From the NCBI GenBank assembly GCA_001563305.1, contig CP013703.1, forward strand, positions 434,001 through 498,000: a stretch of DNA of 64,000 nucleotides, given 5' to 3'. Source of the DNA: a methanogenic archaeon mixed culture ISO4-G1 (GTDB lineage Archaea > Thermoplasmatota > Thermoplasmata > Methanomassiliicoccales > Methanomethylophilaceae). Every line of letters begins with the position of its first letter. The stretch's first letter is position 1. The notes under the pieces are model-generated. The model was given only the letters and a program-made list of their open reading frames with translations. It was not told the origin of the DNA and did no database searches. A program made the translations under genes and the position numbers. Below are positions 1 through 42,600 of this stretch, in pieces.

Positions 1-1304
1 ATTCCGGTGACGAGACCGAGCTTCTGGAGCTCCCTCTGCTCCCTCATCACGTATACGTCGGCAAGATCCTCTACGCAGAGTCCGAGCTTCTTCGCAACGT
101 ACTCCTTGGCCTTGTCGATCTTCATGTTCTTGGAGAATTCCATCCTTGCGACGAGATCTCCGGCGGTCCTGATTCCACCCATTCCAGACGTCATGTAGTG
201 GGGAACGGACATACCTGCAGGGTCTCCTGCACCGACCTAGATTCCGTCGACATGTGCAAGCTCGACGCAGGCCTTGTTGGCCCTTGAAAGGATGTCGATA
301 GGGGGGCATTCGCACATCGGCACTCCGCCGACACCCATTCCCTGGTCGACGTGGACCGGGATGTTGGAATGCTTGACGCAGTCCTTGGATATCGTGACCG
401 CACGTGCGATGTTCCACGCGCTTGTCTTGCTCGTGTTCGTGTTGATGACGCATCCGAACGAATTGGCTCCGACCTTCTCGCACATCTTGTTCTGCTCGTT
501 GGGGTACATTCCGGCAAGCACCTTGCCGTCGAATTCGAGTTCCCCGTGGATTCCCAGGACGTTCTCGGCGGACATTCCCATGTTGATGTAGACATCGGGG
601 AACCTCTTCCTCATCTCCTGAACTCCCAGCAGCGCACCGTAGAAGTCCGCGTCACCGGCCGAACCGACGGTATCGAAGTTGTATCCTTCGGCACCTGCGT
701 TCATGAGCTGGGTCGTGACATAGATGATATCCTCTGCCATCTGATTGGCCGCGTTCTCGGCCGCTTCGCGTGCCTCGTCAATCTTGAACTCCCTCATGAG
801 GTCCGCAGGGTTTCCGTGTGGTCCGTCAGGAGCGTAATAGATTCCCAGGTTGGTCATGCTCCCGTAGAAATACGGCAGCGTCATCAGCATGTTCATTTCC
901 TCAAGTGCCTGGACCTCACAGGCGATCAGCGGCTTCACGGCCTTGACACTGTAGTCGTTCAGTGCCAGTTCCAATGAATCCATACCCATGCACCTTTCCA
1001 TGACGAGGGATGCGTCCAGCCTTCCCAGGTCAATTCCGTTACCGCAGTTACCGTTATCCGTGAACATGCATGTGATGCAGGCATCCTCGGTGAAGACCAC
1101 CTCTTTACCAGGGGTGATTCCCACGGTTCTCTCGGGTGAGCACATGATGTCTGCAAGCGCTTCGACGTCATCTGCGGTCATCGCCGGCACATCGGTCGCG
1201 TCGGCCGCATCATTTGTACCGTCCCAGATTTCGTCTATGATCTCCTGTCTGTTGGTATAGTATCTAGAGCTGTCGCCCATTCTGCTAAGGACATCGTTCG
1301 TCAT
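1..1304 (-). CDS. mtbB: Dimethylamine:corrinoid methyltransferase MtbB, with in-frame amber (pyrrolysine) codon, 3' end beyond the window
   Basis: MtbB transfers a methyl group from dimethylamine to its corrinoid protein MtbC, the entry step of methanogenesis from dimethylamine. The frame starts at ATG 1304 behind a strong AAAGGAGGA ribosome site (1311-1319). It reads 355 residues to a TAG at 239-237, then stays open to the window edge. The residues just before the TAG are ELAHVDGI. After it come [14 protein letters not shown] and then [20 protein letters not shown], which match the C-terminal part of Methanosarcina MtbB as I remember it. The amber codon sits where MtbB carries pyrrolysine in the barrel active site (residue 356). 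Other family landmarks visible are [11 protein letters not shown] and [10 protein letters not shown]. Treating the TAG as a stop would remove the C-terminal part of the barrel, so readthrough is the right model. No mtbC, pylS or tRNA-Pyl gene is seen in the window. Confidence 0.95.
237..239 (-). other. In-frame TAG read as pyrrolysine in mtbB
   Basis: The minus-strand codon order is GAC GGA ATC TAG GTC GGT GCA GGA. Coding similarity to MtbB continues without a frame change on both sides. The position matches the known pyrrolysine of the MtbB family. This shows that the organism decodes UAG. Confidence 0.95.
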
Positions 1305-15100: not shown

Positions 15101-16348
15101 GCTGGCGTTGGAGTTGGTGTTGTCGATGAGATACTGTGAATCGTTGTGTCCCGCATGCAGCTGTCCGTCGAACAGCCAAGCGTCGTCCACCAGGTCATGG
15201 AGCGATCCCCACGTGTTCTCCAGGAACAGTTTCACGGGGCTCCTTCCGTTGGCGTATGTGCCGGTGTACGAGTTGCCGTTGAACTTCACTCCGCCCCAGT
15301 ACGCTCCCTGGTCGTCACCCTGTCCAGTCACCCTGAGGCTGGCGGTGCTGCTCCTGGTGACTCCGTCACCTATGGCCAGCTGGGAGTTCTTCGTACCGAT
15401 GACCGTGTAGGCCATCATCTTGTACAGTGTCCACTGGTAGAAGTTCCATACCATGTACTGTCCGCCCTGTACGTCGGCGTTCAGGTTGTTGGCGGACACA
15501 CGAAGCTGGCCGATCGATTTGTATGTGGTGGGGTTCTTTCCCGACTGTGAAACAAGCTTGCCATCGTCGGTGACGTATCCCTCGTAGACCGCCAGGGCCA
15601 GATACGGCTTCACGACGCCGTTCACGATGTGTGCGCGGGCCTCCATGAGGCTCGGGTCCGCACCGTCGTCGATGCCCTCGAAGAAATCCGGTTTGTTGGA
15701 TAGCCATAGATGGGTGCTGTCGGAATGCCAGTATACCGTGGGGATGTACAGCATGATGTTGTAATCCGCGAGGTCGTCAGCAGGGATGTCGTAGTAGCCC
15801 ACGTCGGTGGTCTTACCGGAGTACGCCCCGTTGGGGGTGTCGGTGGATATGATGGCCTGCTTCAGGTTATCGGGATTCAGAATATATGCAATCCTTCCGC
15901 TCTGGGAGGACAGCTTGTGCTCCCCGCCGTTGGTCTGGGTGTTCCCGATGTTGACCGCCGCGTAGAATGAGTTGAAAGGTCCGATCCCGGTGACGTTATC
16001 GAAACTGAAGTAGCTATTGAGATTCGGATTCAGATCTGTGGTGACCTGAGAGATGCGCCCCTGGTTGGTCTCGTATAGTAGGTTCTTGTAGTTGGTGTCC
16101 TCGTAGGGGGAGTAGTGGACCTTGTCCTTATCCCAGTACTCGACACCGGTGAGGGTCTCACCGTGGACTCCGTCTATGGTGACCGCTGAGGTGGTGAGCC
16201 TGTATCCGTAATCCTTGGCTTCAGGGACGATCACGGTGATCCCGGCATCCGACGGGTACGATCCAAAATCGATTATCGAGAACGGGACCGCTATCATGAT
16301 CATGGTGGCCATCACGACGAACAGCGTGCGCCGACCGGCGGATTTCAT
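3161..16348 (-). CDS. Giant secreted, C-terminally membrane-anchored repeat protein (adhesin-like, about 4,395 residues)
   Basis: The start at ATG 16348 gives a typical signal peptide (MKSAGRRTLFVVMATMIMIA); an upstream in-frame start would place 13 hydrophilic residues before it. The first ~600 residues resemble a large surface domain. MBG/YDG-like segments (SYTYDGQMHQ, SKEYDGTKNL) follow, then a run of beta-rich modules of the InlB B-repeat type (YDFVGWYKD, DTSIFAKW). The long middle alternates two module types whose shared signature is 'NxYxVTW...DGT.L...V.YG..P..P' followed by 'YTAxY'. At least six long-period units of roughly 280 residues can be read. Near the C-terminus there is a proline/glutamate linker (EPEPEPIPPEP), a Thr-rich 'NPDGS' stretch and a transmembrane anchor (FIIIAAGCILVVLCAAWIVY) ending in AGKH. 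The gene is likely transcribed alone. Function is inferred as attachment or cell-envelope structure. Confidence 0.85.
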   Translation of the reverse strand: MKSAGRRTLFVVMATMIMIAVPFSIIDFGSYPSDAGITVIVPEAKDYGYRLTTSAVTIDGVHGETLTGVEYWDKDKVHYSPYEDTNYKNLLYETNQGRISQVTTDLNPNLNSYFSFDNVTGIGPFNSFYAAVNIGNTQTNGGEHKLSSQSGRIAYILNPDNLKQAIISTDTPNGAYSGKTTDVGYYDIPADDLADYNIMLYIPTVYWHSDSTHLWLSNKPDFFEGIDDGADPSLMEARAHIVNGVVKPYLALAVYEGYVTDDGKLVSQSGKNPTTYKSIGQLRVSANNLNADVQGGQYMVWNFYQWTLYKMMAYTVIGTKNSQLAIGDGVTRSSTASLRVTGQGDDQGAYWGGVKFNGNSYTGTYANGRSPVKLFLENTWGSLHDLVDDAWLFDGQLHAGHNDSQYLIDNTNSNASYRDGTTMKTGSDEGLNDNQQLIGNAVIKAKDGSMNAIWTTYANPEYWDFPATFGGGTAYNGIGDSVQFSTGNQTICVGGHYDAQDKGGLNRINVRNSFGIGKLDIGTRLAFLVDGGTVSYSGDTFEITTDRGVVSSGLPVMKGVDITISKTTGDDVAAVYVNGEPIDGSSGTFKFEMRNEDVHLEVIQGRHILMPTPVSYTYDGQMHQGIYATECYTIEGDNRMKDAGTYDIYVTPVNPYTWTDGSNTTAHLTWTIEKRSLLIEGSSSAEISKEYDGTKNLVQTESCTIQKEDLFIHGLADGEIPNLVYTATFKDASAGVNKIIDVTSLTLNESETFDPDNYEYTFVQFVITGTNVVITAIGLDSNSVVIAAVADAVYNGSEITPTPRVTINGNTLQNNRDYVYNYKNNINAGTATVIVQGINNYSSSKSTTFVINKMEIEWPAFVEKAYNGEIQTAVPAESDYYTVVTAASGKDIGDYDMTLRLTDPDNTKWTDTNNATKTAKGMQINDVSNILNLDATPGTWIPEYVPPTRYTSSAGITLPRGDKVSPKTEHGYIWSFEGWYVAGDETHTLVTEIPAGSVGTVSLVALYSSVPEVYTVSFEMQGHGVQVDDQDVEYLDKAVRPDDPACTEYDFVGWYKDALYSEEWDFDSDMVEQDTSIFAKWSIKTFTVTWKNGDTVLQTDEGVSYGTTPVYRGNTPVKQETYQYTYTFDSWVSNDPDAPAVSPATKDVIYTATFESHVISYTVHFSLDDQYIENLTVFNDSYTVAYGTTFRFQVELTAPYSKSIGNITVVKTVRLQDSPVSRMQGETDKFEFEVTGETYITIGGMTLNEYTAVWNYVTAVDENGNFTWAEYSDSHVRHNNRPPAPTIPASVSNTQYTWTFSSWDPAVNAITDDAEYTAQYERTVNQYELRVPTTSERYVVTLSDITGQSPVPMVPGANILVDYGTNYELTFTMTDAFNMSTPELRMNGVTMNPTEPGGHTYHFTVTGETDIEPYGTITINMYDVTWKAYDGTALSTTRLPYDAVPSPPEAPVRASTHQYHYDFDKWDADLDNVTVTTPVRADVVYTATYDEVLNQYTVHLPVSPNGTFVFTAITEGYVDYGTTFQFKMNMGAGYTDCLDAIELTGRVWGESFTIDRTSTDGTYNYYSVVVNGDIEIVSVDNISFNTYQVRWTYMDTYGHSVTSDPVTVTHGQTPAVPNTIPASVSNAEYTKTRTGFTPAVGPATGDVTFVATYSDPARNNYALSVPVDTEQFTITLVDVTGGGSTTIVDRENLSVPYGNEYNITITMAAAYSNSHPVLVSQQTDVTLVSGSTYHFTVTGFTEVGVAGQIARNQYTVTWYNWFEGEPTDGDIVAVHTVAHGNLPAPPADPTRSPDVQYSYMFNEWKAITPNFDLDTPVTQNIAFMATYGSILNNYNVSARISNNEPPVHIFSELNANDEVVHVFEGDNGTVSRQYGSTFKFKLHLGEHYTQSMAQAQVYATHGATKTLLVSTGTLNGDNVYEFEVAGDTSITVENITLNTYRVTWNYEDTYGHASSTYSDIRYGQMARTPNGIPATLSNAQYTKTLTGWLSDTEPAHGLAVVTGNITYIAQYSAPTVNTYTLAVPDSSPPTLTIALYRLVDEQYVPVDISGSMTFPYGTQFRVVVDMGDAFDKTMISFADNGVAIAPLEQGGKTYEFTLTEDKNITIAGNPTRNSYQVRWYSESTLLYTESSVIYGAEPAYPGLSLPTKDSTASLVYTFNKWVIKGTVDDLPDTITADYDFEATYTSAPRTYHITLPTSEHYTIAPKTGSSVDTPWNEDFIFIFTSASNIEAFDFYLDGVAIDRPTLIEGSYQYTIENVTADKTLSVVDHSQTTFDVIWKNGETILYSQKVTYGDRSAYPGQTDPTKDSDTEHVYSFTGWSKDSDEKPDVGEAVTANVIYTAMFSSSARHYTVSFQGSASNAYTFTPLNPTSVAYDGTFRFTLQMGEMYTQCIGTVEVIPKINDVPGEALVHTSLENGVRSFSITVQSDVLITISGIRPNSYTVTWNYKVDATTDDSTTTTVYHGAPAQAPGNIPQTITSVDTVWTFTGWDPAPGTITGPGVVYNAVYEETDRLCSVSVPGYNPRFTINLWEKMGDELEVVNERTFSAAYNSQYRVQIVMDAAFDQHPPVLKKNGADMTLVAENTYDFTVLGDSNIGLSGQLTINTYTVTWIVNDTQTVTEEHVEYGATPAYPNTIRPNYPSTQQYSYTFNEWEPVTEGVSITTPVTQDVTYRATYTPVLNQYTVSLQSSDDFTLAHEGPLTVDYGTEFTIQLTLSAKFTQSLNAARLSATVNGVTEDMEDTGTISGSVKTFTFTVEEDVFISVNHLSPNTYSVTWQYRVGDTTVVTTEPESYVYNRPPQPPTIENAVTDGAVTYTFTGWDHALSPITADTDFVACYDEVPAQHRMTLIDDAEPFYLELYRIADGQDPEQIDISTERSFLVDYGSEYHIKLVLTAAYNNSTPFLVGQGRLPLVQDTTDTYRFVMGTSDVHIDVGGMIRKNVYVLTWNNYDGTEISSREVEHGAIPSYTSAAPTKASTVQYSYVHDGWTSSITGETYETPTAPVTANTTYTAHFNQVVNQYTVSFQNSEDFILTPVGNPTVDYNSTLTFTLQITNSRYTQSITSATAWKTQGGETTQLAAGTVSQGVKTFQMQVTGNALITIQNLRINTYQITWVYLDGDLQETSTTTTAIHGPVPAPPNFDTVVENESTRKTFTSWSPTLQSATENTTYTAQYDTEAVEYDVSRPMSTGQFTVTLNKKVGEVLTPENRPSFSAAYGTRYVITVEMAAPFSNSAISIKINDVEKTNQTVGSVSYEFVVTEDTAVGIGGRIGINMYDVTWVSEGNVIKIQTVGHGTTARYPDSDPTKAPTDANVYTFTSWTSDSQAVAYGGPITEDVTFTANFESSARPYTVLWRDYDGTVLHTATVNYGVLPDEPDDPVRDEDAVNRYAFNHWTPEVAAVSGDVSYTAVYTATPLKVTITWKNYNGAILRVDTNFPTGNTPSYEGAIPVRPADAQYTYTFDSWLPALDGVDRDMEYTAQYSGVLNQYTIRWADENGVLLDTSTVDYGQMPAYPGQTNPTKEADVQYTYTFRGWSPDLTEVTGETTYFAVYDATVNKYDVTWVSYDGSVLKVDKIEYGSTPVYSGVSPMKIQPAHYKHTWVGWDRAIVPVEGDATYTAVFEQSIYDVTVTVRATELPDLDHGTVENAGTVTVDSNSVLRVSENTLTIEGTAYTFTAIPNEVEGQYNVFISWYVGDNVVSDGDMLSQDITVIEARFASIPAGASLSISTYIGSEGMGNFTVDANPELPYLSVSDIDVGSMIELDNENNIHVDGHVIAAVPLELRSANISFDGWTYMATGTEVHTGDRITSLTAIGARFTLVADDVTVTWKDHDGTILREDTVPYGSMPEYGAIPVRQAETINDVEHVYIFTSWSVEGIPTEISSATADIEYTACYRDFTDTVLITVDLNGGSSEVVTENNGWYYDPTTRMYYKEYAKSDDPLDLGTATKEEGLHYTYEFNIWVGPTGQETVPNTAAFAHYRADFTEVAKQYTVTFNANGGTVSGNSTKTLVYNQQFGNLPGAYWTDYAFLGWYTDPSEGACITSSTVFTEAYDMTLYAHWEYVEPEPEPIPPEPTHTEETEVIVNPDGSVTTITTETTQNPDGSSIHKVTETTENTDGTKTENVIQQDTDANGNVTTTTTEKHTAADGTYNSEETTELPDGAKVIVDYKGDSQSETISSDVQVDVGEAPRVSDDVAGVINEKISEVVETEQDPHIVIISENSTAIPKSVIDNVIAGNGSLTYIENENELYFTAETLNGIGLPDVESMLSIIQVDTPEEYKDVLPENTKVFEIRMTVDDTEYHELFVSPVKVTIKYPLSEQQNPANIQVFYLGTEGQEKMDFEYIDGFVVFYIPHMSLYSVEYIEDAPIADESDYTFIIIAAGCILVVLCAAWIVYAGKH

Positions 16349-16818
16349 AGGACCACCCTGTCCTGTCCATAGCCCAGGCTGAAGCATTCGTCAATCGTTG
16401 ATGAATGGCAACACCGCCCATTGCCGTGATTCTCGTTTTTCGAAGTGATTTCCAACCACCGTTCTGTACTTTTCAATCGGCTGATTGTTCATCCAATCAA
16501 GCGGCCTTATTCTTCCTTAGGGCGCTTATCTGGGTATATCCCAGTTGGATGGTTTTGTATTCGCTATTTTGCTGCCTAATATATATTTTGCTTTTCTTAG
16601 GACGGTAGATAGAAAAGAGCCGTCGCAAGGGTATGTTTGAAAGGTATAGGTCATCCAGACAATCGTCGAACATTTGGGATTAAGTCTATAATCGAATAGG
16701 GGTTTCGACATATAGTGACAGGGATCGGCGGATAGTATTGGGACTCGCGGAGAGGCCCGCGGAAGGACATCCGGCGTCCGTAACAGTATTTTTATAGTTC
16801 CCCTTAATTCGCTTGCCT
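16349..16818. other. Non-coding region between the giant adhesin gene and the Sec61-beta gene
   Basis: This 470-bp stretch separates divergent genes. A minus-strand TATA candidate (AAATATATATT, 16588-16578) could serve the giant gene, which would give it a leader of about 200 nt. The right end holds the Sec61-beta promoter. Small open frames here have no codon bias or recognisable product. I see no RNA gene. Confidence 0.5.
16786..16800 (+). promoter_or_regulatory. TATA promoter of the Sec61-beta gene (leaderless)
   Basis: The TATA-like element TATTTTTATAG (16788-16798) ends 20 bp before the ATG at 16819. That is the spacing of an archaeal promoter whose transcript starts at or next to the start codon. 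No ribosome site is visible, consistent with a leaderless mRNA. Confidence 0.6.
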
Positions 16819-26200: not shown

Positions 26201-26773
26201 ATGGACGCTATGGATAAATCGCCGCAGAAGAGGAAGACCAAAAGAGTCGTCGCAGCAGTGATCATCGTAGCGGTAGTAGCGCTCGCAGTCTACACCTTTT
26301 ACGACTTCAACGGCCACTCTCTCGACCCGTCGGACCGTCAGGTCCTCCTGATCGTGACGGACTCGATGGACGGGAACGTGACCGAGTACGAGATCGATTC
26401 GTTCCCCAAGAACACGCTGATCATGGTCAAGCACCTCTCCGCAGAGGAGATCGGCGAGATCAAGATCGGCGATGTGCTGTCTTTCAAGATGGCGGACGGG
26501 AAACTGAATCACCACCGCGTCATCGGATTCCATCTGGACGACCCATCGGGCGCCTGGATCGAGACCACCGGAGACAATCCCAGTTACTACAGCACGGACC
26601 ATGTCAACCTCAATGACATCAATGGTAAGGTGATCGGGACCATGCAATGGATCGGCCATCTGGTGACGTTCGTCAAGCAGAACTTCCTGCTGGTAATAGC
26701 ATTGCTGGCAGGCGTAGCGATCGCTGGCGAGATCTATAGGTACGTGAAGACCGGAAAGGAATTGAAGGAGTGA
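26201..26773 (+). CDS. SipW-type (archaeal/ER-type) signal peptidase I
   Basis: The protein has 190 residues, with an N-terminal helix (residues ~15-32), an extracellular catalytic domain and a C-terminal helix (~160-178). Catalytic Ser55 is in LLIVTDSMDG. In place of the bacterial lysine there is His104/His105 in KLNHHRVIG, and Asp125 lies in TTGDNPS. This is the Ser-His-Asp layout of the archaeal and SipW-type peptidases. SipW in Bacillus cleaves the signal peptides of the biofilm fibre proteins TasA and TapA. The next gene encodes a TasA-like protein. SipW homologues are typically encoded next to their substrates. The neighbouring downstream genes share the expected kind of signal peptide. 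Confidence 0.88.
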   Translation: MDAMDKSPQKRKTKRVVAAVIIVAVVALAVYTFYDFNGHSLDPSDRQVLLIVTDSMDGNVTEYEIDSFPKNTLIMVKHLSAEEIGEIKIGDVLSFKMADGKLNHHRVIGFHLDDPSGAWIETTGDNPSYYSTDHVNLNDINGKVIGTMQWIGHLVTFVKQNFLLVIALLAGVAIAGEIYRYVKTGKELKE

Positions 26774-26778
26774 GAAAA

Positions 26779-27489
26779 ATGAACACAAGAGCAATAACAC
26801 TGATCGCGACCATCGCGGTCATCGGAATCGTTGCCGTCGGAGCTGGATACGCATACACTGCGATCACAGTGAACGACAGCAACAGTGCATCAGCAAAATA
26901 TGTGACGCTGACTCAGGATGATGGAGCTCAGCAGTCTCCAGAAGCCAAATATACATTCAGCGTGAACGCTGTAGAGTACTTTGATAGCGCCTCTTATTAC
27001 GAAAACAGCGCTGAAGTTTTGGCATACAAAGTATCTGCCAACCAGGTTGCGCAGTCACCTAGCGTGTCTGGATACACTCTCCTGAAATTGGGAGACGTCA
27101 GAATAACCGCGACTGCATATGGATACAGCTCCAATCTGCCCGCAGTCGTGATGACAATCAAGAGTTCCAACAGTTTCGATATGGGAACTAAGCTGGGCTA
27201 TTACCTTGTTGACAGCAGCAATGCTATTGTTGCTAAGACAACATCAGATGATACATGGGTATTCCAGGGAGCTTATGCAACGGCAGGTGGGGTCACATTC
27301 ACTGCACCTAATTCCCCAAATGCTAACGGATCTGTGTACACTCCCGTGACACTCAGTCTTTGCTATGGATACGCTAATGATTCTGCAACAAAAACCATAG
27401 GGCAGGATAAGTACGTACCAATCGAGAGTCCTCAGAACCTGAGTGGCGGACAACTCGTGTTTGCAGTAACGGTTAACGAACCTGCATGA
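26779..27489 (+). CDS. TasA-like small secreted surface protein (fibre subunit candidate)
   Basis: The protein has 236 residues. Start is ATG 26779, six bases after the ribosome site AAGGAGTGA that overlaps the peptidase stop codon; the longer GTG start at 26770 is less likely. The signal segment ITLIATIAVIGIVAVGAGYAY ends in the motif GYAYTAITVNDSN. The same AYxA-x-[ST]-x-N pattern opens all TasA-like proteins of this locus. The mature part is rich in Ser, Thr, Ala and Tyr and predicted beta-rich, and it ends in GGQLVFAVTVNEPA, a terminal beta-strand pattern repeated in the relatives. The direct position after a SipW-type peptidase supports processing by that enzyme. The mature sequence is AT-richer than the signal region. 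Confidence 0.75.
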   Translation: MNTRAITLIATIAVIGIVAVGAGYAYTAITVNDSNSASAKYVTLTQDDGAQQSPEAKYTFSVNAVEYFDSASYYENSAEVLAYKVSANQVAQSPSVSGYTLLKLGDVRITATAYGYSSNLPAVVMTIKSSNSFDMGTKLGYYLVDSSNAIVAKTTSDDTWVFQGAYATAGGVTFTAPNSPNANGSVYTPVTLSLCYGYANDSATKTIGQDKYVPIESPQNLSGGQLVFAVTVNEPA

Positions 27490-27522: not shown

Positions 27523-29370
27523 ATGTCCGAGAACATCACAAACAGGTCCATTGCCGTGCTGCTCCTAGCAGTAGCTCTAGCCATGGCCATTGTCCCTGTG
27601 CAGTTCTCCGACGACATCGACGCAGATACAATAACCACAGTGAAGATCGTCGACCAGAACGGCGACGAGATTGCAACACCACTCTTCAATTCCACACTGG
27701 GCTTCGATACGGTGGACAACGAGGGTACCCCCGAGTACTCCCTCCCCGTGAAGAAGATCAGCGGGGAGGCACCGGCATTTTTGAGGATCGGTGCCTCCTC
27801 GGGTACGTTCAAGCTCACCGTAGCGGCCGAAGGCAGCTTCGGTGTCCTTGAGCAGACAGGATTCACCGTCTTCTTGCAGGACGGGACGATTCAGTACCAC
27901 GTGGTCCTTACCGCGGATGATGAGTACACTGCTTTGCTGACCGACGAGGACGGCAACGACGTGTATCTCGAACCCGGCAAGGACTACCCGCTGACCATCT
28001 ACACGGCATCACCGTATCAGAGCACAACACCGCCCGAGGCCTCCGGCAGCATCGACCTCCATTTCGGAATAGATGCGGTAGGGACCAGGACCATCACATT
28101 CTATTCCGACGGCGAGGTCCTCGACACGAGGACGTACGCGGTCGGAGATGTGCTGGGAGCATTCCCGGACGTATCCAAACCAGGATACGATCTGGACGGG
28201 TGGCTTTGCGGTACAGCATATGTCAACGAGAGGACGGTGGTCTCCGACCTCACGTCAGACACCATCACCGCGCAGTGGAGTGAGATCAAACCCGAACCCG
28301 AACCTCAGCCGATCATCCACATCGATACGGAGACGATCGAGAACGAGGACGGATCGATTACAGAAAAGGAGACTACGGAAATCATCTATCCCGACGGTAC
28401 CAGGACAGTCTAGGTCACCGATGACACCACATCGTCCGACGGAAAGGTCGAGACGGTGGAGATCGACGAGTCGACAGTCGGCCCCGACGGCAAGGAGCTC
28501 AAATGCACCTGCAGCGAGGCCATAGTACAGATGGACGACGGTACCGTCGAGATAACTTAGGATTACGACCACGACAACGAGGACGGAACGGAGAAGGACA
28601 TCCATTCCCACACCGTCTACGGCGAGGACGGAAAGATGATTTCCCTCGAACAGACAGTCATCTATAAGGATGCCGAGGGCAACACCACGGAGATCACGGC
28701 GTACGGCGACGGCGAGAGGGTATACATCCCCGTGCCGGAGAACACCGTCATGGCGGTGGATTACGCCAAGGACTCCGTCGAGGGAATGGACGCACAGGTC
28801 GTCATAATGCCCACGGAAGAGGAGGACGGAACGGTCGTCATCCCGGAGGACACGGTCCACATCATAGCGGAGTACGGTTATCTGGCATCGGTCACCGCAA
28901 GGAACGGTACGATGTCGGTCACAATCGACAACGATGTGCTGAAGAATTTGTCCGGCAACAGGGGGGATGTTGTGCTCTCGATCAAGCCCGTGACCGAGTA
29001 CAACACCACCGGCGCCCAGTGGAAGGTCATCGGAGACAACTACGCAGTCAGCGTCACGCTGTTGCAGAACGATACTCTCATCTCGGAACTGGGAGGCACC
29101 GCGGAGATCGAAGTGGAGCCCGGATACGAGGCCATGCACGTCTACTACGTTGCTGACGACGGAAATCTGGAGGAGATCCCGTGCACATACGATTCCGAGA
29201 CAGGAATCGTGGCATTCTCGGTGGTCCACTTCTCGGTATACATGGCAACGAACGGTGAATACTGGGCAGGTCCGTCGCAGATGTGGGTGATGATGCTCCC
29301 GCTGATCCCCATAACGTTCCTGGCATTGATGTTCGCAGGCATCAGGAGGGTCGAAGATGAGCAGTCGTAA
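27523..29370 (+). CDS. Secreted InlB/flg_new-type surface protein with two in-frame TAG codons and a C-terminal membrane anchor
   Basis: The reading frame runs 616 codons from ATG 27523 to TAA 29368-29370, interrupted only by TAG at 28411 and 28558. Before the first TAG are a signal peptide (IAVLLLAVALAMAIVPV) and a domain with the InlB-type motif (GTRTITFYSDGEVLDTRTY, GYDLDGWLCG). An acidic PEPEPQPIIHIDTETIE linker and DGT-type stretches follow. The same kind of 'NPDGS...DGTKT' region precedes the C-terminus of the giant protein at 3.2-16.3 kb. The two TAGs fall in this stretch, at EIIYPDGTRTV-TAG-VTDDTTSS and DDGTVEIT-TAG-DYDHDNE. Downstream are a beta domain and a transmembrane anchor (MLPLIPITFLALMFAGI) with RR after it. 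The next gene starts inside the last 14 bp. The residue at each TAG is probably pyrrolysine. Confidence 0.78.
28411..28413 (+). other. In-frame TAG number 1 (likely sense codon)
   Basis: Codon order is ACA GTC TAG GTC ACC GAT. The same frame stays open and coding-like for 957 bases after it to the TAA at 29368, except for the second TAG. There is no ATG or ribosome site between this TAG and the second TAG that would start a new protein. Confidence 0.8.
28558..28560 (+). other. In-frame TAG number 2 (likely sense codon)
   Basis: Codon order is GAG ATA ACT TAG GAT TAC GAC. It is 147 bases after the first TAG in the same frame. The next in-frame ATG is 28636, with no convincing ribosome site and no signal peptide after it, although this part clearly continues a secreted protein with a C-terminal anchor. 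Confidence 0.8.
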
Positions 29371-30537
29371 GCCCCTGATGATGCTGATGGCCACATGCGT
29401 GGCGTTCATGATGATGTTCGCCGGAGTGGGATACGCGTACACGGCGATATCCGTCAACGACGGCAACAACGCCAGCGCCAATTACGTCACTATAACGCAG
29501 GAGGGATCCGACATCGGAGCGTACACGTTCGGTGACGCCGAGATAAGGTACGACCTGATATCGACACGTTACGTGGAGACGTGGTACAGGCTGCTGGATT
29601 CCGTAGATATCCAGGTAGGCAGCGATCTGTACAAAGGGGCCCCGCCGACGAGGTCGCGACCCTGAACATAGACGCGACGGCCGCCGGCGACTACCAGATC
29701 AAGATCTGGCACCTGGTGTCGGATGCCGGTGACTGGAGGGCAGTGGTCCATTACTGGCCTGACGGACAGAACGAGGATTACGCCGTGGCCAACAATTACG
29801 TCGCGCCGGTTGCCTGCGGTGAAGATAACGCGGTCACGATCACACTGCACCTCAATGAGGGTCACAACACATACCACTTCATGGCGTACACATCCGCCGT
29901 CAACGGTGAGGCCAAGACCATGCTGCCGGTGAGCGTTCTGGTGAACGGTGCGCGCTTCGTCGTGTCGACGACTGAACAGGGAGTGACATTCCCGGCCCCG
30001 TACCCCGATCAGGAGTATGGACCCGGATTCAAGATCACGAGGACGCACCACGTGCAGTACACCGTGGAGACAAGGGACGTCCCGCAGAGTCTGACCAGCG
30101 TCTACAAGCTGAAGCCTGCCTTGACGAGCGACCTCACGGTCGGAGGGGATGTCTACAAGGTGGTCAAGTTCGGCGGAGAGCAGTCATACCAGATCATGAG
30201 GGTGGCGGAGCAGACCACAGGCTCGCACCAGACCAGCTACGACGTGTTCACATGGTACGATCCCAGCACGTTCCCGGCAATGGGCGGCTGGAAGATGATC
30301 ATGGAGTACTGGACGGACAATGACGGCGCAACGGGTGTCGGAGTCCACAAGACGTTCGTCCTGGGCGCAGGCGAGAACAATAGCAACCAGATGACATTGT
30401 ACCCCGGAACCAACGGCGAAGTGGTGTACAAGGTGAAACTCTATTTCGGAGCCATAGGGGGCAGCAGCGATACAAGGCCCCCGTTGAACGGCGCGATAAG
30501 CGACGGTACGATAATATTCAGATGCACGGTCGGATGA
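29357..30537 (+). pseudogene. TasA-like secreted protein interrupted by a single -1 frame change near 29640
   Basis: ATG 29357 has a ribosome site (GGAGGG) and overlaps the end of the previous gene. The first frame gives a signal peptide ending GVGYAYTAISVNDGNNASANYV, the pattern of the other TasA-like proteins, and runs to 29665. The continuation of the same protein is in the -1 frame: it resumes as GPADEVATLNIDATAAGD and reads to TGA 30537, ending DGTIIFRCTVG. The change falls in AAAGGGGCCCCGCCG (about 29635-29649). No canonical slippery heptamer is in frame there, so a one-base loss or a sequencing error is more likely than programmed frameshifting. Restored, the protein would be about 394 residues. 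Confidence 0.7.
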
Positions 30538-30558: not shown

Positions 30559-30669
30559 ATGCAGGAGAACGTGAGACCGGAAGACACTGGGATGAGGGCC
30601 CGTCAGGGACGGGCCTCGGTGGTCCACGGGACCGTATGCAATCAGAGTTGGAAGGTGATGGCATGGTGA
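30559..30669 (+). CDS. Possible 36-aa leader peptide coupled to the giant surface protein
   Basis: An ATG at 30559 follows AAGGAGA (30548-30554). The frame encodes 36 residues, begins MQENVRPEDTG and ends CNQSWKVMAW. Its stop codon (30667-30669) overlaps the start codon of the giant gene at 30663. The peptide is polar and not recognised. Overlap suggests translational coupling or simply a chance ORF in the intergenic leader. Confidence 0.35.
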   Translation: MQENVRPEDTGMRARQGRASVVHGTVCNQSWKVMAW

Positions 30670-33600
30670 GAGATGTAGCCATTAGCGGCGCCCACGGCGG
30701 TTTGAGAATGAAGACCATTGCGGTCATTTCGGTGATGGCATGCATGTTCGCATGCGTGGCAGTGCTGATGGAGCTCAGTGCGACCGCTCCCAACATAGAG
30801 AACGACCAGTACGTCATATATCATCCCAACGGCGCGACCCTGTCCGACGGAAGCGAGGCATCCTACATAGAGTTCGGATACTACGGTATCGCATCCACGG
30901 AATACAATCCGGAGCGCTGGTACGACGAAGTGAACGGGAAGGATATCTCCTATGTGTACAAGAAGGATCAGCAAGGGCAGGTCGTCGAGACCTCGACGGA
31001 CATAGTGAACTGGGTCGGGCCAGATGGTGTAGAAATCAACGTATGGGGTTATTCAATAACGATAACCGCACATACCATGAATGCCGGTACATACAGGATT
31101 GACTTTCCGGAAGAATTGAACTATTACCCCGGGACGATCACTGGAGCAACCAGGGATTATGCTACGGGCGGTCTGGTGTTCACAACTGCAGAAGCCAACA
31201 AAACGACTACTATCACAATGACGGATGCGAGCTTTTCGTACACCCCTAACAAGGTCTTCGGAGGATGGGGAAACGATCCAACTAACCCGTCAGTAGTCTA
31301 TCTGCCTGGTGATGTCATCCCGGATACAGTGACTGATCTATGGGCCGTATGGGTTCAGCCGGACGTGTTCGAAATGAAATCGGAGGAAATCCACTATTCA
31401 TATTGGACGAATAACAAGTATACACTACCGGTTTCCGCACCCTATGCCCTTTTGGACAGCGATGACAACGGTAAACTCGATATGGATCTTACCAATTACA
31501 AAGTCAACAGGGATGGGGAGCAAGGTAATACTGGTCTCTTGTGGAGGGATCTCGCAACCTCAGACCACGGATGGACTCCCGACATGTACAAAACCATCTA
31601 CAAGATGGATCCGAACAGGTTCACGAACAAGCATTCCACCAAGAACAACATCGGGGAGATCAAGGTGAGTCACAAAGGCGAGCTCACGGGTCTCAACGAG
31701 TACTACACCAACGACGGTGTGAATTTCACATACGGTTACACTCCCTTGGTGCATGTTACCGAGTTCACCAAGACCGGGGACATGAACATCTCTGTCGACA
31801 GACTGGGGAACAAGTACATCAAGAACAACAGCGACGATTACATGTGTATCTCCAAGATTATGTATGCGACGTCCGACAATACGAAGAAAATCGTCTATCT
31901 AACCGGTACCTATCTGTCGATTGACGAACAGAAGATAGGCAATGCGAATAGGATCGCGATTGATACCTGGAGCGGATTCGACTATAGCTCCTACTACTTC
32001 AAGGACAGTAGCGGAAATAGATACACCGCGATCTCGGACGGTACGGAATACCGCCCGACTGCCGGCGGAGCCGACTATGATCCATTGGCCGTAAAGGATT
32101 TCAGCACGGTCAAAGTGAACTACTTCTACGACAAGCTGGGTAACAAATACAACAAGATGGGCAATCTTTACACCCTGATGGCCTACGTCGCCTACACAGA
32201 TCCGCAGGATGTGAACACCATGACGCTGATCTACAAGCCCGGTGCATGTCTCTCGGACGAAGAGTACAACATGAGCAACAAGGTGCCGTTGACGAACCTG
32301 GTGGATCTAACAACATACTCATTCAAGGATTCGGGCGGTGAAGTATATACAACAGACGATGGCCTCAGATTCACCCCATCCAATGCCACGATCCACACGA
32401 TCGCCGATTATCGTTCGGAGATCCATGAGGGGAAGACATACTACTATGATGACATGGGTACCAAGTACATCCTGTCCGGAAACGACTATGTCCCGATCAC
32501 TAAGGTCGCATACGATACCTCCGGTAAGAAATATGTGCTCTACGACAGCAATTCTCAGCCGTACATGACGTATGATGAGAAAAGCGGTGCAACGTTGAAG
32601 AAGATAAACAGCCTTACAGATGCGAGCGTATACGACAATTACTTCTTCAAGAACGTCGACATCAACCTCGTCGTACCCGCGGGAACGTTCACGAAATACG
32701 AGGGGACCACCAACAACTCGGTCACTCCGACAATATTCCTCCTCAGCAAGGACGGAAATGTGGAATACAAACCGTTCAAGATGGGCGGGGATGTGATATT
32801 CGATTCATTGGGAATAACCACCTACACGCTCTCGGCAAGGCACGGGGACGGAGGGGTCGGAGGTTCATTCGTCGCGGACGGCCACAAACTCATCATGGGG
32901 AGCAACATCACCAATCCCAAGCTTGCCAGTAATAAAGATCCAAGGACCACAGGCGGTGCACCGCAGTTGATCGGAGGCAGTGCGGAGGTGAACATAACCA
33001 CTGCTGTTGTTTCAGGAAAGGAGATAGTGTACGAAGGGGATTTGTCATCCACCGTCGACCTCGGAACCTATCTGATCATACACAGTGGTATCTACCAGTG
33101 TGTCGTCGCCGGAAGTGTCAGTACAGGTTCTATACTTAATATCGGTACCAACGGCCAGAACGGCAATCTGTCCACCTATACGGTGATGAAGGGCGGATTG
33201 GTCACCGACACCTTCTGCGGAGGAAACGCGGGGACCAGCCGCGGAGGGAGCGTCTATGGTGCTAGTACCAACGACCTATCGTCCGGAGGAGTCTTCGTAT
33301 ACATCCTCGGCGGAATGATCACAGGGGACAACTACGAGGATAAGGCATCCGGATACAAACTGGACAACCCTGCCGGCGGAGACTATCTTCAGAAACTCAG
33401 ATCATCGTTCATGACGACCGAGTCCAGTGTCCTAGAGGGAGGGAACTCAAAGGGTACTAACGGCAACACTTCCAATATCTTCGGTACAGTCCACTTGTTC
33501 ATCAGCGACAGGGGAAATGTCTGGGACGCACAGGCTGCGGGAAGGACCAACTACACCACGACTCAGAATGCGTTCATGGAGATTAGCGGTATCGCGAAGG

Positions 33601-36600
33601 TCAGGCATGTGGCATGCGGTACGATCACCGATGCGGCGGAAAAGGATGCCAACACGGTCGGGGCGCTCATCGCCGACAACAGCGGCGACAACAGGGGTAC
33701 CATAGATCTGCACGTCATGGGCAATGCGATGGTCGCCAACCTCATCGGTGGCGGATATGATACCTTTGCGGAAGCTCAAGGAAGGTCCCTCATGAAGGGA
33801 CACATCCAAGTAACCGTCGAGGGCGGAACGGTCGGAAACGTTTACGGCGGAGGATACAGGGGAAGCATCGGCGACAGAGAGGACAGTTCCCAGCTGACCA
33901 TCACCGTCACCGTCAAAGGCGGAACCGTCGAGAACAATGTTTATGGGGGAGGAAGCGGAGGCCAGAACAAGATCCATCATAATGAAAACGGTTCGATAAA
34001 TGCCAACGCCGAACAGGGAAAGAACTCCACCGGAAGGTCCTACGTCTACGGGACCGTCGAGGTCAACGTCACCGGCGGTGTGGTCAAAGGTAGTGTCTAC
34101 GGTGGCGGAATGTCCGTTCCCAAGCTGTATCAGTACTGCTCATACGGTGATAACTCTTTCAAAAATGAGAGTGTCGAATGGTCCAACAATTACGTGGACA
34201 AGGATCCGTTCAACTATGTCGCATCTGTCAAAGGTCCGGTGACCGTCAACGTCACCGGTGGAGAGATCTGGCACGACGTATACGGTGCCGGAAGGGGTAT
34301 CGAGATCGCATACACCCCCGGTACAGGAACGCACAGCAGCGACGGCAATTACACATTCGCCAACGGTACGGACGAATACATAACCAACACGATCGTCAAG
34401 AGGGACGGAACGTTCTATCAGATGCCCTGGCTCACGAACGCCGACGGTTCGATCACATACAAGTTCGATACCAGCGCCAGTTTCATCAGTGCCGATGCAG
34501 AGACCAATAGGATCACATCAGGATACTATCTCGATTTCGCCAGGGTCGTGGGCCCCACCAAGGTCAACGTTACGGGCGGGTCCATCGGAGGCGACGTCTA
34601 CGGCGGAGGTGCCGTCGGAAAGGTAGTTTCGGGTAAACTGGGACCCAATAACGCCACGCCGGCGCAGACGGAGACGCTCGTCGGGAGCACCACGGTGGAT
34701 GTCTCCAACGGAACGATCGAGGGCAACGTCTTCGGAGGGGGTCTCGGAAGGGCAGGCGTATCGGTGACGGGAGCCACGTCCAAGAGCACCACCGTGGTAA
34801 CGTTGGGCGACAACTTCGTCTACATATCAGGTGCCGACACGAGCATCGGCGGTTCCGTCTACGGTGGATCGTCAGTCGGTGACGACGGATCCCAGGCCAA
34901 ATTCGAAACCGGTACGGATGACAACAAATCCGACACGCGTATCGTCATTGAGGAGGGGACCATCGGCGGTTCCGTCTACGGTGGAGGATTCATGGGCAAC
35001 GTCTGGGGTAATACCAGCATCTATGTGGGGTATGATTATGAGTATAACTCACTCACAGACAGATACACATTCGCCTATCACGACAGCGAGGAACTCAAAT
35101 ACATCAATCTCGGATCGATCTATGCCGGAGCGGACATCGGTCTGGATGATACCGCGAGCAGTGCCGAAGCTTTCAGACCCGGGGTCACACCGGTCCACGG
35201 TGACGGAAGTATCTACATCCACGGAAACAACAACAGGCCCGGAATGACGATCAGCGGAAGCATCATGGGCAGCGGGAACTCATGTATGACCGGAGGTTTC
35301 AGATCCATTTTCATAGAGGACTTCACGAACGATTCGGAGACCACCATCAAGGGGATCCACCGCGCGGATGTCCTTACAATCGAGAATTCGGTATTGGATA
35401 TCGACGTCAGGAACACCCAGACCACCGCCGAGGGCGAACCCAGCAGGAATGCGAGTATCTATCTCATCGGTAAGCAGGCCGACGACAGCACCGGGATGAC
35501 TCTCAAGGACGGTACCACCATAACCATCTACGGTCCGGTCGGAGAGGTGTCCAAGTTCGAGAGCAGGAACAGCAGGGACGCTTACACATCGGTCACCGCC
35601 CCGTCGAACAAGGTGATATTCTCCGGAGGTGCCACGTTCAACGTGAGGACCGGTACGACGTACAACCAGGTCTACGGTTACACCGAGATGGCGGTCAAGG
35701 ACAGGTCCGATTACGGAGCATATGTCCTGGGAAGCTCGAGCAGTACCGGAGGATTCGTGGTCTACAAGGACTCCATATACAAGGTGGCCGAGACATCGTA
35801 CTTCTCCACCGGTAAGTGCTGGTACATCGCGGGTATCGAGAAGAAGGTCATCAACATGACCCTGTCGGCGGATGAGGACCAGGTGGAGCACATCGTCACA
35901 TCGTCCGTGGACATCATGAAGATCCAGGATAATGCTAAGATGAAGTACACCGGAGGAACCTTTACCAAGCTTTCATCGTTCGATGCCGAGACCGATTACA
36001 CGTTCGTACAGCCCGGCGTCTACTATGAGGACCAGGTCTTACACAGGGAGTACATGGGATTCATGTTTGGATTCCAGGGTGCCGAGGACTACCATATGCT
36101 GTCCACAGGAACCGGACAGGGTGAGTATACCACCTACCAATACAACGCTACCGATTACAAGGGAATATACTATCGCGAGGGAGTGGCCAGGGGGCTCCCG
36201 CTGAACTGTACCGGATACACCAATGCGGATCAGGCCGGTTCCTACACATTGAACTTCCTGTTCTCAGGAATGCCCAGGAACCAGACCGCATACATCGGGT
36301 ACCTGACCCTGAACTTCCAGGAGACCAAGGACATCGTCTACGAGGTCCCCGACGGAAACGGCGGAATGGTCGAAATGACCCAATCCATGCTGGTCAATAC
36401 GGTCGAAGTCCGTATCGACCTGTATGTGGCAGGAAGCGGAGGTCTGAACTCGGACGACGATTTCTATGTCAACGTCAACCTCGTCAAGAGGGACGACGTT
36501 TGCAGCGGTTCGACCGATGTCCTGGTCCCGGAAGGATACATCAGGGGAGTGACCACACTGAAGTGGGTCGAGTTCAGCGGCATCTCCGACCAGACCGTGC

Positions 36601-39600
36601 TGAATGTACACATGGCGAACAATTCGGACAACACCTCCGGATGGATGGGGGTCACGCCGGCGGTCATCAGGAACTACAGCACCGGCACGACGATGGAGTC
36701 GATCCTGACTCAAGTTGATAACATAAACGATAACCTCTCAGATTACTACTTCAGGGACTCCGCGGGAAATAGATACGTCACTACCGACGGTTTGGTGTAC
36801 ACGCTTATCGGAGGCGAAGAGGAGTATGACATCAGACATCATCCCCATACGACGGTGGAGATCGACGGTACCACGTACTATGTCGACATATTCGGCAACA
36901 AGTATGCCGGAGCAGAAGATCCCACCCCCGTTTCCAGGGAGGTGTACAAGAAGGTCGGCGATGATCCTGACAAGGATAAGAAGCAGATTCTGTATTTGAA
37001 CGGAACTAAGATCTCTGCCGCAGAGCGTGTTATGACCGATGCCATGGCCGTGAACGAGGAGGTCGGAACCCTCTCGGGATCCATGGTCGCTACCATCGTG
37101 TACCAGATATCGAACAATATCTTCGAGCAGGGCTCCACGATCACACTCCACTTGGACATCCTGGACAGTGCCGGGGTACATCATCTCTCCACCATCGTCC
37201 TGACGCCCAAGATGATCAGGACATACGAGATAACGTTCTACGACGACTACGCCAACCCGGAGAATTATCGGCCGGTCGTCATAACGGTCCCCTACATGAC
37301 CAAGCTCACCGCGGAGGATTGCCCCCAGACCCTGGACAACTTCTCAGGATGGTACATCGACGAGATGTTCACCAACACGTTCAGTTTCGACAATCCGATC
37401 ACCGGTGACATGACCCTGTACGCCAGGTACACTTTCGCAGTGGTGTTCGACGAGCAGGACGGAAAGAAATCCACGCTGTATGTGGCACAGCAGCACCCCG
37501 GCGCCCTGATGAAGGAGCCGGAGGCACCCGTCCGCGAGGGTTACGTCTTCGAGGGATGGTACAAGGAGAAGAACCTGCTCCACATGTGGGATTTCGACAT
37601 GGATCCAGTTGAGGACAACATCACGCTGTACGCGAAGTGGACTGGAATCGAGTTCAAGGTCATATTCGTGTATGTTGACAAGAATGAGAACGAGCAGGTC
37701 TTCGACGGATGGGATTACGACAACAGCACGGACCACAGGCATGGTAAGATCGGTGAGGAATACGACATTCACGGTGCGGATGCCAACGAATATTATGTCA
37801 TGAAGTGGGTCGCGGGCAACGCGATCTATCCGACCGTCAAGTACGGTGCATCGTTCTCGACCCAGGATCCGACGCAGGGCGGCAAGAACATACTGACCTT
37901 CGCCGAGGAGAAGCTGAGCGAACAGCTCGGCACGAACCCGTTCATACGCTGGTTTGTGGTCGTCAGCGACCCCAACGCCCAGCAGGGATCGTTCGTGAAG
38001 ACCCAGACCGTCTACTCGGATACCATCCTCAGCAGGGATATAGTGGACTGGGAGAACAATACCGTCACGCTCTATGCGACGACCGGAAGCATATCCATCG
38101 AGCTCTACATGAAACTGAAGGACGACACCCACGATGCTACCGCCAAGATCACCCCGCCGTACAGCTACCTTGTCTATCCGATCCCGACCAACATCGGATG
38201 GAGCAGCGAGCACAGCAAGTATCTCGATGAATACGACAACATATACTACGCCGTCAAGAATTCGGTGGTGTACGATACCGAAGTCCAGGATCCAGATTAC
38301 TATCTCGATAACGACAAGTTGGTGCGCTACTATTACGACAGCGATAGCGGAACGTACTACTGTAGGGATGATGACACCAAGGAGTTCGATTACGAGATCG
38401 TGGATGGAGTGACCTACTACTACGACAAGTGGGGCAACAAGTACACCAAGTCGGGTACCGTACAGAACCCGGTCTACACCCTGGTCTCGAGGGTTGTCTA
38501 CGAGGTCTCAGGAGATGACGTGAACATCAAGAACGTAATCTACATCGATAACAACGCGTACATCTCCGATAGCGAGAGGGTGATGGAATCTAAGCTGGTC
38601 AAGGTGGAGAACCTGTCCACACTGACCTGGGCATCGTATTACTTCGTGTATGTCGACCCGGCGGATCCGACCGACACCTACAGATGCATCACATCCGACG
38701 GTCTGACCTTCACCAAGATCGGCGGAGGCGCCTCATACGTCCCCGCAAGCGATACCAACTACAGGGAGGAGGTCTACAGCGGAGTCAGGTACTACTTCGA
38801 CGCCGTCGGCAACAAGTACGTCAAGGATGCGAACGAGAACTACGTCCTCGTGTCGAGGGTGGCATATCTCGCGTCCGGCGACTATCAGAACCAGAAGCAG
38901 GTCCTCTACGTCTCCAATGACACGTACATCACGGATGACGAGAGGGTGATGGAGTCCAAGCTCGTCCACGTCGACAGTCTGGACGACCTCTCGTCCTACT
39001 ACTTCATGGATGTCTACAAGAATAGATACCAGTACGATTCGAACAGAGGCGAGATCCTGATCATGAGCGGCTACAGTGAGAACTACTACCACTTCGAATA
39101 TACCCTCAACGAGGCATCCCGTTCAGGATACAGGCTCTCCGGATGGCACAACACCAACGTCCCGGAGAACGATGCGGAGTATCCCACCTCAGGTGTCCAG
39201 AGGTTGATGAAGATCTTCATTACCAACATCGGCGGGCACACGGCCGTCACCAAAGAGGTGCTCCATCTCGATGCCAAGCCGGTCATCACCATGGACTTCA
39301 AGGGCAAACCTCAGGACACCCAGAAGTATGTATACCCCAACAATGAGACCTCCTTCCCGTGCATCGATGTACCGACGAAGGCGTACAGGATCGTGTACGA
39401 GGCCGAGTGGGAGAGGCTGACATATACCATCAGCATCACAGATCAGGCCCACGGAATAGTCGACGCGTACCTCCTGGACCAGGACAACGGTACCAGGACC
39501 TACATCGAGAACGGAACGGTCAAGGCCCACTACGGAGACAGGATTGAGCTGAGGTACACCCCGCCGGGAACGGACTATGTGTTCAGCAAGTGGCTGGTAT

Positions 39601-42600
39601 ACGGCGATTACGAACTCGATGATGCTACCAGTTCCAGGGCCACCATGGTCGTCCACGGGGATGCGGAGATCATGGCCAAGGACATCGGAGAGGTCCAGGT
39701 GAGGATCATCGTCTACTACGATTACGGAAAGGACGGATCGGGACACACCAACGGAAAGCTGGAGTGGGGAGATGCGGACCACACGGACGTCTACCTAGTC
39801 AACTCCAGGGGCGTGGCATACCACCTTGATATGGTCAAGGGAGTGAAAGGCGAGTTCTTCTACACTGGAGAACAGGAGCAGGGAGAGGTCTACAGGGGAA
39901 TGGTCCCCGTGGGTACCGATTACAAGGTCCACATCAGATACGGTACGGACCCAACCCCCATGATCATGAAGGAGCCGGATTCGGACGGCGACGGAGTAGA
40001 TGACTACATCGTCATCAACAGTTCGCAGGCCAGGACCTTACATTACTATGCAATCTTGGCAAGGATAATGGACTTCAGTTCCGGTATCTACAATGAGGTC
40101 GTGAACGAGCGCGGCACCACAAGGGATCATGATGGCAACGTCATCTCCGGTCCTACGAAGGTGTTCGATGCCATCACCGGAGAGATGATCGTGAGTATCA
40201 CCAAATACGTGGGAGTCCGCGATTCGCTCCTCAGCCTGGACGACGGATGGATCACCAACAACTCCAGCAACCAGTTCCCTGCGGTTCAGATTGTCATATC
40301 CGAAGGATACTACTACGATGTGCTGGAAGGATTCCCGGACAAGTCCTACATCACGACGCTGATCGAGGTCGGAAAGGATTACACCACCAAGAACGGTACT
40401 GTGTTCTCGCTGAAGGACGGAAGCACGTATTATCCGTATCAGGACACGGCCAATTTCGTCCCCGAGGTCGATACGAGTACCGGCACGACCTATTACATGG
40501 ACAAGCTGGGCAACAAGTACATCAAATCCAACGACATCTACACGGTATCCTCGAGGATCCTGTACGACTCCAACGATGTGAAGTACGTCTGGTACCAGCC
40601 CGGATCATACGTGGCCGGCTTCGAGAGCATCGGTGTAGACCCGCATAATGTCGTCGAGAAGGGCGATCTCAACACCGGATTGTTGGGATACCACTTCCAC
40701 GAGATCGTGCCATACGATGTCAGGGACATCAACATCCACACCGAGACAGCCGATGACACCGTGAACCCGCTGATCCACCCCGGCGGCCCTGTGAATGTGG
40801 GTAGTTTCAACCTCAACTGGACCAGGACCGATGCACCTGCGGATATAGTGTTCAGCCAGCTGATACCCAAGGCATACACGGTGCACTACAGGATCGGTCT
40901 CGTCAACGGAGAGTCCCCCCAGCAGGATCTCAGCTACGATGACGAGGGCCAGCACTGGAACAGAACATTCGGATTCGCTGCTGCGGAGGCCGCGGTGGCC
41001 CAGATGCAGGTGTACGAGGGCTACAGCGTCGTCGGATGGTATTATGATGCAGCATGCACTCAGATGGTACCGACCACCCAGACACTGGACTTCGGAACAT
41101 GGGCCAGGATGCAGGCCACCGGCCACACCCTGTACGCCAACCTGGTCAACACCTCTGTCAAGGACGTCTATGTGAGGACCTATCAGAGCATCGACGGTTC
41201 CAGCTACGTCTTCAAGGAGACGGACCCGTACGAGGTCATCAGGATCGCCCTGGACAACGGCACCACGTACTCCGGTACGTATAGGATGACCATCCCGGCA
41301 GGATACACGCCGTCGCCGGTCCTCAACCCGAGCAAGCCGGTGACCAGCAGCACCCTGACACTTCAGGGTGTAATGCTGGCGATAACCATAACCTATCCCA
41401 ACAACTGGGATGACAACACCGACAAGGTGTACATTGACATCACATACAACAGGTCGGTGACCGGAGAGCTCGTGCTTGACCCGAACAGAGGTACCGGCGA
41501 TACCAGCGGTTGGCCGGAGACCGCGGTGTACGAGCAGCAGATCATCATGCCGACGCTCACCAGCGGCGGAGTGGGAGTCTCCAATTGGAACGTCTACACG
41601 ACATCCGACGGAGGCCAGAGCTGGGTCATAGACAATGACAGGTCCGATTCCATCACCAAGGCAAGGGACGGAACGTTCACCTACACCGTCATCGCGGATG
41701 ATGCGGGAAGGATGCTGAAGTTCCAGCCGTCCTATGAGGTGATGATCCAGCTGACATACCTCACCACCGAGGGTATATTCGGAACCAACGATTCCCAGAG
41801 GCTCGTCGTGCAATACCCGTTGAACCATGCCCTCACCACAACCGAGATCCAGAACGATGTCCACATCACGGATCTGCCGGCATGGGTGGCTCCGAACAGT
41901 CAAGGCGTATACGTCCCCAACATCAAGGTCGGTAACGAGATCATCCTGGACAACGAGGATTACTCGTCGCAGTCCTGGCGCTATACCCTTACAGGGGACA
42001 CCACGATGGCCCTCATCTGGAACATCAAGAAGGTAGAGTTCAGGTACTCCATCGACAAGGACCTGCAGACCGACGCACCTTACGCTGACGTCTCCGCCAC
42101 GGTCGACTCCAACGAGGATTACATCCCGCCCAGTCAGATCTATAAGAAGTTCGATTACAATTCCGAGATCATTATCAAGATCAATCCGATCGCCGGGCGT
42201 ACCGTCGATATGGTTCGTTCGACCGTCAACGGAACATCGGTTTCCGACCTGGTCTCAAGAGGAACGGTGATATCATACATTCTCGACGAGGACAGGGGAT
42301 TCCAGTGGGAGTTCAAGCTCACAGCGGACCAGTCCGATGTGGTCATCGTCACGAAGACCATCACCAAGACTGTGAACTTCTTCGTCAACGGTACCCTGCA
42401 GGAGCAGGTCGATGTCGACCAGTATGACAGCTTCGAGTTCAAGAACTTCAACCCCTCCGGGGACTGGTACGGTCCCCAGGCGGTCGGAGGAGCGTACCCC
42501 TGGTACACCGACATCAATTTCACCAACGAATACCAGAACGACAACTACAACTACACGTTCATCGCGACCAACGACCTCTCGCTGTACACGTATGCGGACA

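What the first reader, a model, noticed from the sequence alone, without database searches (positions are those of the whole stretch)
27523..29370. A surface protein of 615 residues with two in-frame TAG codons
Seen: one open frame from signal peptide to C-terminal membrane anchor is broken only by TAG at 28411 and 28558, with no alternative start. The organism decodes UAG in mtbB. Inference: this is a non-methyltransferase surface protein carrying two pyrrolysines, both in the linker before the C-terminal domain. A genetic code with TAG read throughout as pyrrolysine has been proposed for some archaea, and this gene would test it in the envelope.
Basis: partly seen in the sequence, partly recalled or inferred. 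Interest (0 to 1): 0.85.

Follow-up and report, generated by a model that had tools for sequence, protein, structure and literature searches.

The report
Predicted pyrrolysine-containing archaeal surface protein
A rumen methanogen that reads the UAG "stop" codon as the rare amino acid pyrrolysine has two such codons inside a cell-surface protein gene, and the matching gene of a distant relative has one at exactly the same place, so the protein is probably made full length, though no peptide has been seen.

Summary
In detail: window 27523-29370 is one 615-codon frame (signal peptide to C-terminal membrane anchor) broken only by TAG at 28411 (codon 297) and 28558 (codon 346). Codon bias continues after both TAGs. 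Genome length and a published record identify methanogenic archaeon ISO4-G1, which has pylS, tRNA-Pyl and TAG-containing mtbB/mtmB/mttB. The best new evidence is comparative. A syntenic orthologue in another species (about 36% identical over the C-terminal half) has TAG at exactly the codon-346 column, although synonymous sites are near saturation. Other full-length homologues have sense codons at both columns. ISO4-G1 also has a TAG in the core enzyme RaSEA, where compared relatives have Glu or Gln and the sequence after it is conserved. Decoding as pyrrolysine is therefore the likeliest reading. Caveats: the orthologue has a one-base frameshift upstream of its TAG (real or assembly error), the next gene in ISO4-G1 is frameshifted too, and no peptide data exist. 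The class is known: 25 pyrrolysine genes (16 non-methyltransferase) were counted in this genome in 2016, and ISO4-H5 was reported with an amber codon in an adhesin-like gene. This is a good extra member, not a new kind.

The parts
27523..29370 (+). surface (adhesin-like) protein gene, 615 codons with TAG read as pyrrolysine, TAA stop
27523..27621 (+). N-terminal signal peptide / hydrophobic helix (about residues 1-33; cleavage site not determined)
   Evidence: sequence; helix 7-21 in the model
28090..28287 (+). internalin-B-like beta-grasp repeat (List_Bact_rpt / Flg_new), about residues 190-255
   Evidence: PF09479 E=1.4e-4, below the curated cut-off; profile match to Internalin B chains E=2e-4
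28312..28707 (+). predicted ladder of beta-hairpins with DG turns, residues 264-395, holding both TAG codons
   Evidence: AlphaFold2 model, pLDDT about 65-85 here, pTM 0.41
28411..28413 (+). in-frame TAG, codon 297; ATC (Ile) in G028, CAC (His) in G071; no TAG there in G012 (column falls in a gap or on Val, depending on the alignment)
28558..28560 (+). in-frame TAG, codon 346; also TAG in the syntenic orthologue G012 (L033:9936-9938), TAC (Tyr) in G028, ACG (Thr) in G071/G069
28810..29250 (+). conserved C-terminal domain, residues about 430-576 (contains HFSVYM near its end)
   Evidence: 36% identity to G012 over the C-terminal half; profile matches in 38 of 102 family genomes
29275..29355 (+). 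C-terminal transmembrane helix region followed by a short charged tail
   Evidence: sequence; helices 585-591 and 594-613 in the model
26770..27489 (+). upstream small surface-type gene; homologues lie just upstream of the gene in G012 and G028 as well (synteny)
3..1304 (-). mtbB (dimethylamine methyltransferase) with its in-frame TAG at 237-239, cut by the window start
   Evidence: TIGR02368 E=8.5e-159 across the TAG

Best explanation
The gene encodes one membrane-anchored, exported adhesin-like protein. tRNA-Pyl decodes the UAGs at codons 297 and 346, putting pyrrolysine into two strands of a stalk-like beta-ladder, so that the C-terminal domain and anchor are made. Shown: the open frame, the machinery, the TAG shared with a diverged orthologue, sense codons in other homologues, and an in-frame TAG in a core enzyme of the same genome. 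Inferred: actual incorporation, and that the residues are mostly tolerated substitutions (TAG acting as an ordinary sense codon) rather than catalytic ones.
For: pylS is present and tRNA-Pyl (CUA) lies nearby in ISO4-G1 and in the G012 genome. mtbB, mtmB and mttB carry TAG. The G012 orthologue, syntenic by its upstream genes, has TAG at exactly the codon-346 column, flanked by aligned anchors (CxC, DGT, GT.K), at 36% protein identity with only 23 of 55 shared four-fold sites identical; one shared TAG column out of 306 aligned codons is about 0.3% by chance, about 1% within the ladder. Full-length homologues without stops exist in G028, G071 and G069. Coding bias persists after both TAGs. RaSEA, found over the cut-off in 29 of 31 genus genomes, has a TAG only in ISO4-G1, where the four relatives compared have Glu or Gln and the sequence after it is highly conserved. 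ISO4-G1 was reported with 25 pyrrolysine genes (PMC4824259).
Against: No proteomic data. The G012 orthologue has a one-base frameshift about 130 bases upstream of its TAG, so it may be a pseudogene, if this is not an assembly error. The next gene in ISO4-G1 (29357-30537) is also frameshifted, at GGGGCCCC, so the locus may be decaying or hold sequencing errors. The TAG at 297 is not shared. The stop type alone is uninformative.
Confidence: 0.75

Rival explanations
1. Young pseudogene: two nonsense mutations in a fast-evolving surface gene, so that only a 296-residue unanchored fragment is made, or nothing.
For: The neighbouring gene is frameshifted and so is the G012 orthologue. Surface genes of this family vary in number between species. 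TAG is the commonest one-step nonsense codon here.
Against: tRNA-Pyl is present, so TAG is not a plain nonsense codon. There is no TAA, TGA or indel in 615 codons. The shared TAG in the orthologue would be a coincidence of about 0.3-1%. Coding bias is undiminished after the TAGs.
Confidence: 0.13
2. Conditional product: with little charged tRNA-Pyl, translation stops at 297 and releases a soluble ectodomain; with enough, the anchored full-length protein is made, so methylamine supply sets how much is anchored.
For: Both TAGs lie before the C-terminal domain and anchor, and one is conserved in the orthologue.
Against: Positional evidence only. Low TAG stop use (12 of 348 ORFs, about half of them likely read through) suggests constitutive decoding, as argued for 'Ca. 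M. alvus' in PMC4153887.
Confidence: 0.08
3. Two genes: a short secreted protein ending at the first TAG and a second protein begun at the ATG at 28636.
For: An ATG at 28636 opens 244 codons in frame.
Against: No signal peptide on the second product. The ATG is ATC in the G012 orthologue. Homologues are single proteins spanning both parts. Codons 298-371 would be non-coding yet have strong coding bias.
Confidence: 0.03

Closest known systems
Amber-containing adhesin-like gene and other non-methyltransferase genes of ISO4-H5 (PMC5011839) and the 16 extra pyrrolysine proteins of 'Ca. Methanomethylophilus alvus' (PMC4153887)
   Same: Same order; in-frame TAG in a gene unrelated to methylamine use, in an organism with pylTSBCD; also predicted only.
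   Different: Here two TAGs in one surface protein, one at the same codon in an orthologue from another species. Whether the ISO4-H5 adhesin-like gene is homologous was not tested.
Pyrrolysine in tRNA-His guanylyltransferase by neutral evolution (Heinemann et al. 2009, known here by its title in the reference list of PMC4153887)
   Same: TAG as a tolerated sense codon in a non-methyltransferase.
   Different: A cytoplasmic tRNA enzyme; here an exported protein with a shared TAG column.
Pyrrolysine-containing methylamine methyltransferases MtmB, MtbB and MttB
   Same: UAG decoded by the same tRNA-Pyl in the same cell.
   Different: There the residue is conserved across the family and catalytic (established knowledge); here most homologues have ordinary residues.
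Listeria-Bacteroides repeat / Internalin B beta-repeat surface proteins
   Same: One weak beta-grasp repeat at residues 190-255.
   Different: The rest of the protein has no match in Pfam or NCBIfam and no convincing fold match in the PDB.

Membership tests
Genes that encode pyrrolysine through UAG | Organism has pylS and tRNA-Pyl (CUA) | tested here: met
Genes that encode pyrrolysine through UAG | In-frame TAG with a coding, homologous sequence continuing after it | tested here: met
Genes that encode pyrrolysine through UAG | TAG conserved or replaced by sense codons in homologues, without decay downstream | tested here: inconclusive
   TAG-346 shared with G012 and sense codons in G028, G071, G069, but G012 has a frameshift upstream of its TAG
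Genes that encode pyrrolysine through UAG | Pyrrolysine detected in the protein | not testable with these tools
   needs mass spectrometry
Archaeal adhesin-like (anchored surface) proteins | Signal peptide, repeat/beta-rich ectodomain, C-terminal membrane anchor | tested here: met
   by inspection of the sequence and by the model; no dedicated signal-peptide predictor was available
List_Bact_rpt (PF09479 / TIGR02543) | Score over the curated cut-off | tested here: not met
   22.3 against 27 bits and 17.1 against 20.95 bits
Genetic code with all TAG codons read as pyrrolysine | No TAG used as a terminator | tested here: inconclusive
   12 of 348 sampled ORFs end in TAG; six have coding-like extensions (two in the NRPS region, mtbB, mttB, RaSEA, this gene) and several have none

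The most novel reading that the evidence does not exclude
Pyrrolysine at codon 346 is kept by selection because it does something on the cell surface: either its reactive ring modifies or cross-links the stalk, or the UAGs make membrane anchoring depend on the pyrrolysine supply.
Probability: 0.1. Interest if true: 0.85.

Novelty: new member of a known kind. Interest (0 to 1): 0.42.

Why it matters
If made, the protein would put pyrrolysine on the outside of a cell, where the classic examples are cytoplasmic methyltransferases. The TAG shared across species at near-saturated synonymous divergence, beside a TAG found only in ISO4-G1 in the same gene and one in RaSEA, gives a small set of genes in an isolated, sequenced methanogen for testing by proteomics whether UAG is an ordinary sense codon in this lineage.

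Tried and rejected
Stop type as evidence: rejected, because TAG is expected about 65% of the time by mutation. Coding-like extension alone as evidence: weak, since 26 of 336 ORFs ending in TAA or TGA also have one, presumably from tandem genes in the same frame, so homology was used instead. Search of viral contigs: no relative. Scan of genome contigs: found only the same G012 record, SUSW01000045.1. PDB fold search: no convincing match, TM about 0.1. Literature search for a paper on a full pyrrolysine code: none in the held library. Internal start at 28636: rejected as unconserved.

Full report
Observation. Window 27523-29370 holds one 615-codon frame with TAG at 28411 and 28558 and no other stop before the TAA at 29368. 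Codon bias is strong in all three segments and absent in the shifted frames. An ATG at 28636 could open the last 244 codons, so 'no alternative start' needs that qualification; it lacks a signal peptide and is ATC in the orthologue.

Organism. The genome is a single contig of 1,593,503 bases, the exact length published for methanogenic archaeon ISO4-G1 from sheep rumen (PMC4824259). That paper counts 25 pyrrolysine-containing genes, 9 of them methyltransferases, and names a pyrrolysine-containing non-ribosomal peptide synthase. Whether the present gene is among the 25 could not be checked. pylS and tRNA-Pyl are present; mtmB, mtbB and mttB carry TAG.

Homologues. Relatives occur in 38 of 102 genomes of the family. 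The closest is at G012:C46 (L033; SUSW01000045.1, MAG SIG4). It is syntenic: relatives of window gene 26770-27489 lie just upstream, and the same holds for G028:C29. Over the C-terminal half G012 is 36% identical and has TAG at exactly the codon-346 column, with anchors on both sides (C.C, DGT, GT.K). Only 23 of 55 shared four-fold sites agree, so the two genes are far apart. For one TAG to fall on the other by chance is about 1 in 306 aligned codons, or about 1 in 100 within the ladder (a simple uniform-placement estimate). G028, G071 and G069 have full-length open homologues with sense codons: at column 297 ATC in G028 and CAC in G071; at column 346 TAC in G028 and ACG in G071 and G069. Alignment in this repetitive region is less certain for them than for G012.

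Caveats. In G012 the frame is broken by a one-base shift near L033:9795-9807, upstream of its TAG. It could be an assembly error or a pseudogene; this was not resolved, and it is why confidence is not higher. In ISO4-G1 the next gene (29357-30537) is also split by a frameshift at GGGGCCCC.

Genome context. In a 28% sample, 312 ORFs end in TGA, 24 in TAA and 12 in TAG. Six of the twelve have coding-like extensions: two calls in the NRPS region, mtbB, mttB, RaSEA and the present gene. RaSEA is telling: 29 of 31 genus genomes have it, only ISO4-G1 shows a TAG in it, the four relatives compared have Glu or Gln there, and the sequence after it is highly conserved. So UAG is very probably read through in a core enzyme of this organism, unless that gene is itself newly dead.

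Structure. The AlphaFold2 model (mean pLDDT 74, pTM 0.41) gives a beta-rich N-terminal part, a weak InlB-like beta-grasp domain, a ladder of strands of about 10 residues (264-395), a C-terminal domain and terminal helices. Residues 297 and 346 lie inside strands. The PDB fold search gave nothing convincing.

Mechanism. Most likely TAG behaves as an ordinary, rare sense codon for pyrrolysine and these two residues are tolerated in an exposed stalk. The shared column leaves room for selection at 346. Regulation of anchoring by pyrrolysine supply is possible but untested.

Relation to known work. Non-methyltransferase pyrrolysine genes are described in 'Ca. M. alvus' (PMC4153887) and ISO4-H5, the latter with one adhesin-like gene (PMC5011839). 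From memory, a full reassignment of TAG to pyrrolysine has been proposed for some archaea; no such paper was found in the held library. The finding is a new member of a known kind.

Noticed in passing
L048:13814-14803 (G000:C1, about 273814-274803): RaSEA (archaeosine radical SAM protein, TIGR01210) has an in-frame TAG at codon 244 only in ISO4-G1; the relatives compared have Glu or Gln and the sequence after it is conserved.
   Followed up: yes
window 29357-30537: The gene after the finding is split by a frameshift at GGGGCCCC (about 29637-29644): real mutation or homopolymer error.
   Followed up: partly
L033:9795-9807: One-base frameshift inside the syntenic orthologue, upstream of its conserved TAG.
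   Followed up: partly
L049:16429-17445: ORF of unknown family with an in-frame TAG and an open, partly coding-like extension of 122 codons.
   Followed up: no
L056:6783-20000: Non-ribosomal peptide synthase region with in-frame TAGs, matching the pyrrolysine-containing NRPS reported for ISO4-G1.
   Followed up: no
window 3161-16387 (-) and 30636-43481 (+): Two giant ORFs of 4408 and 4281 codons lie on either side; the first matches the finding's protein weakly at 31% identity.
   Followed up: no
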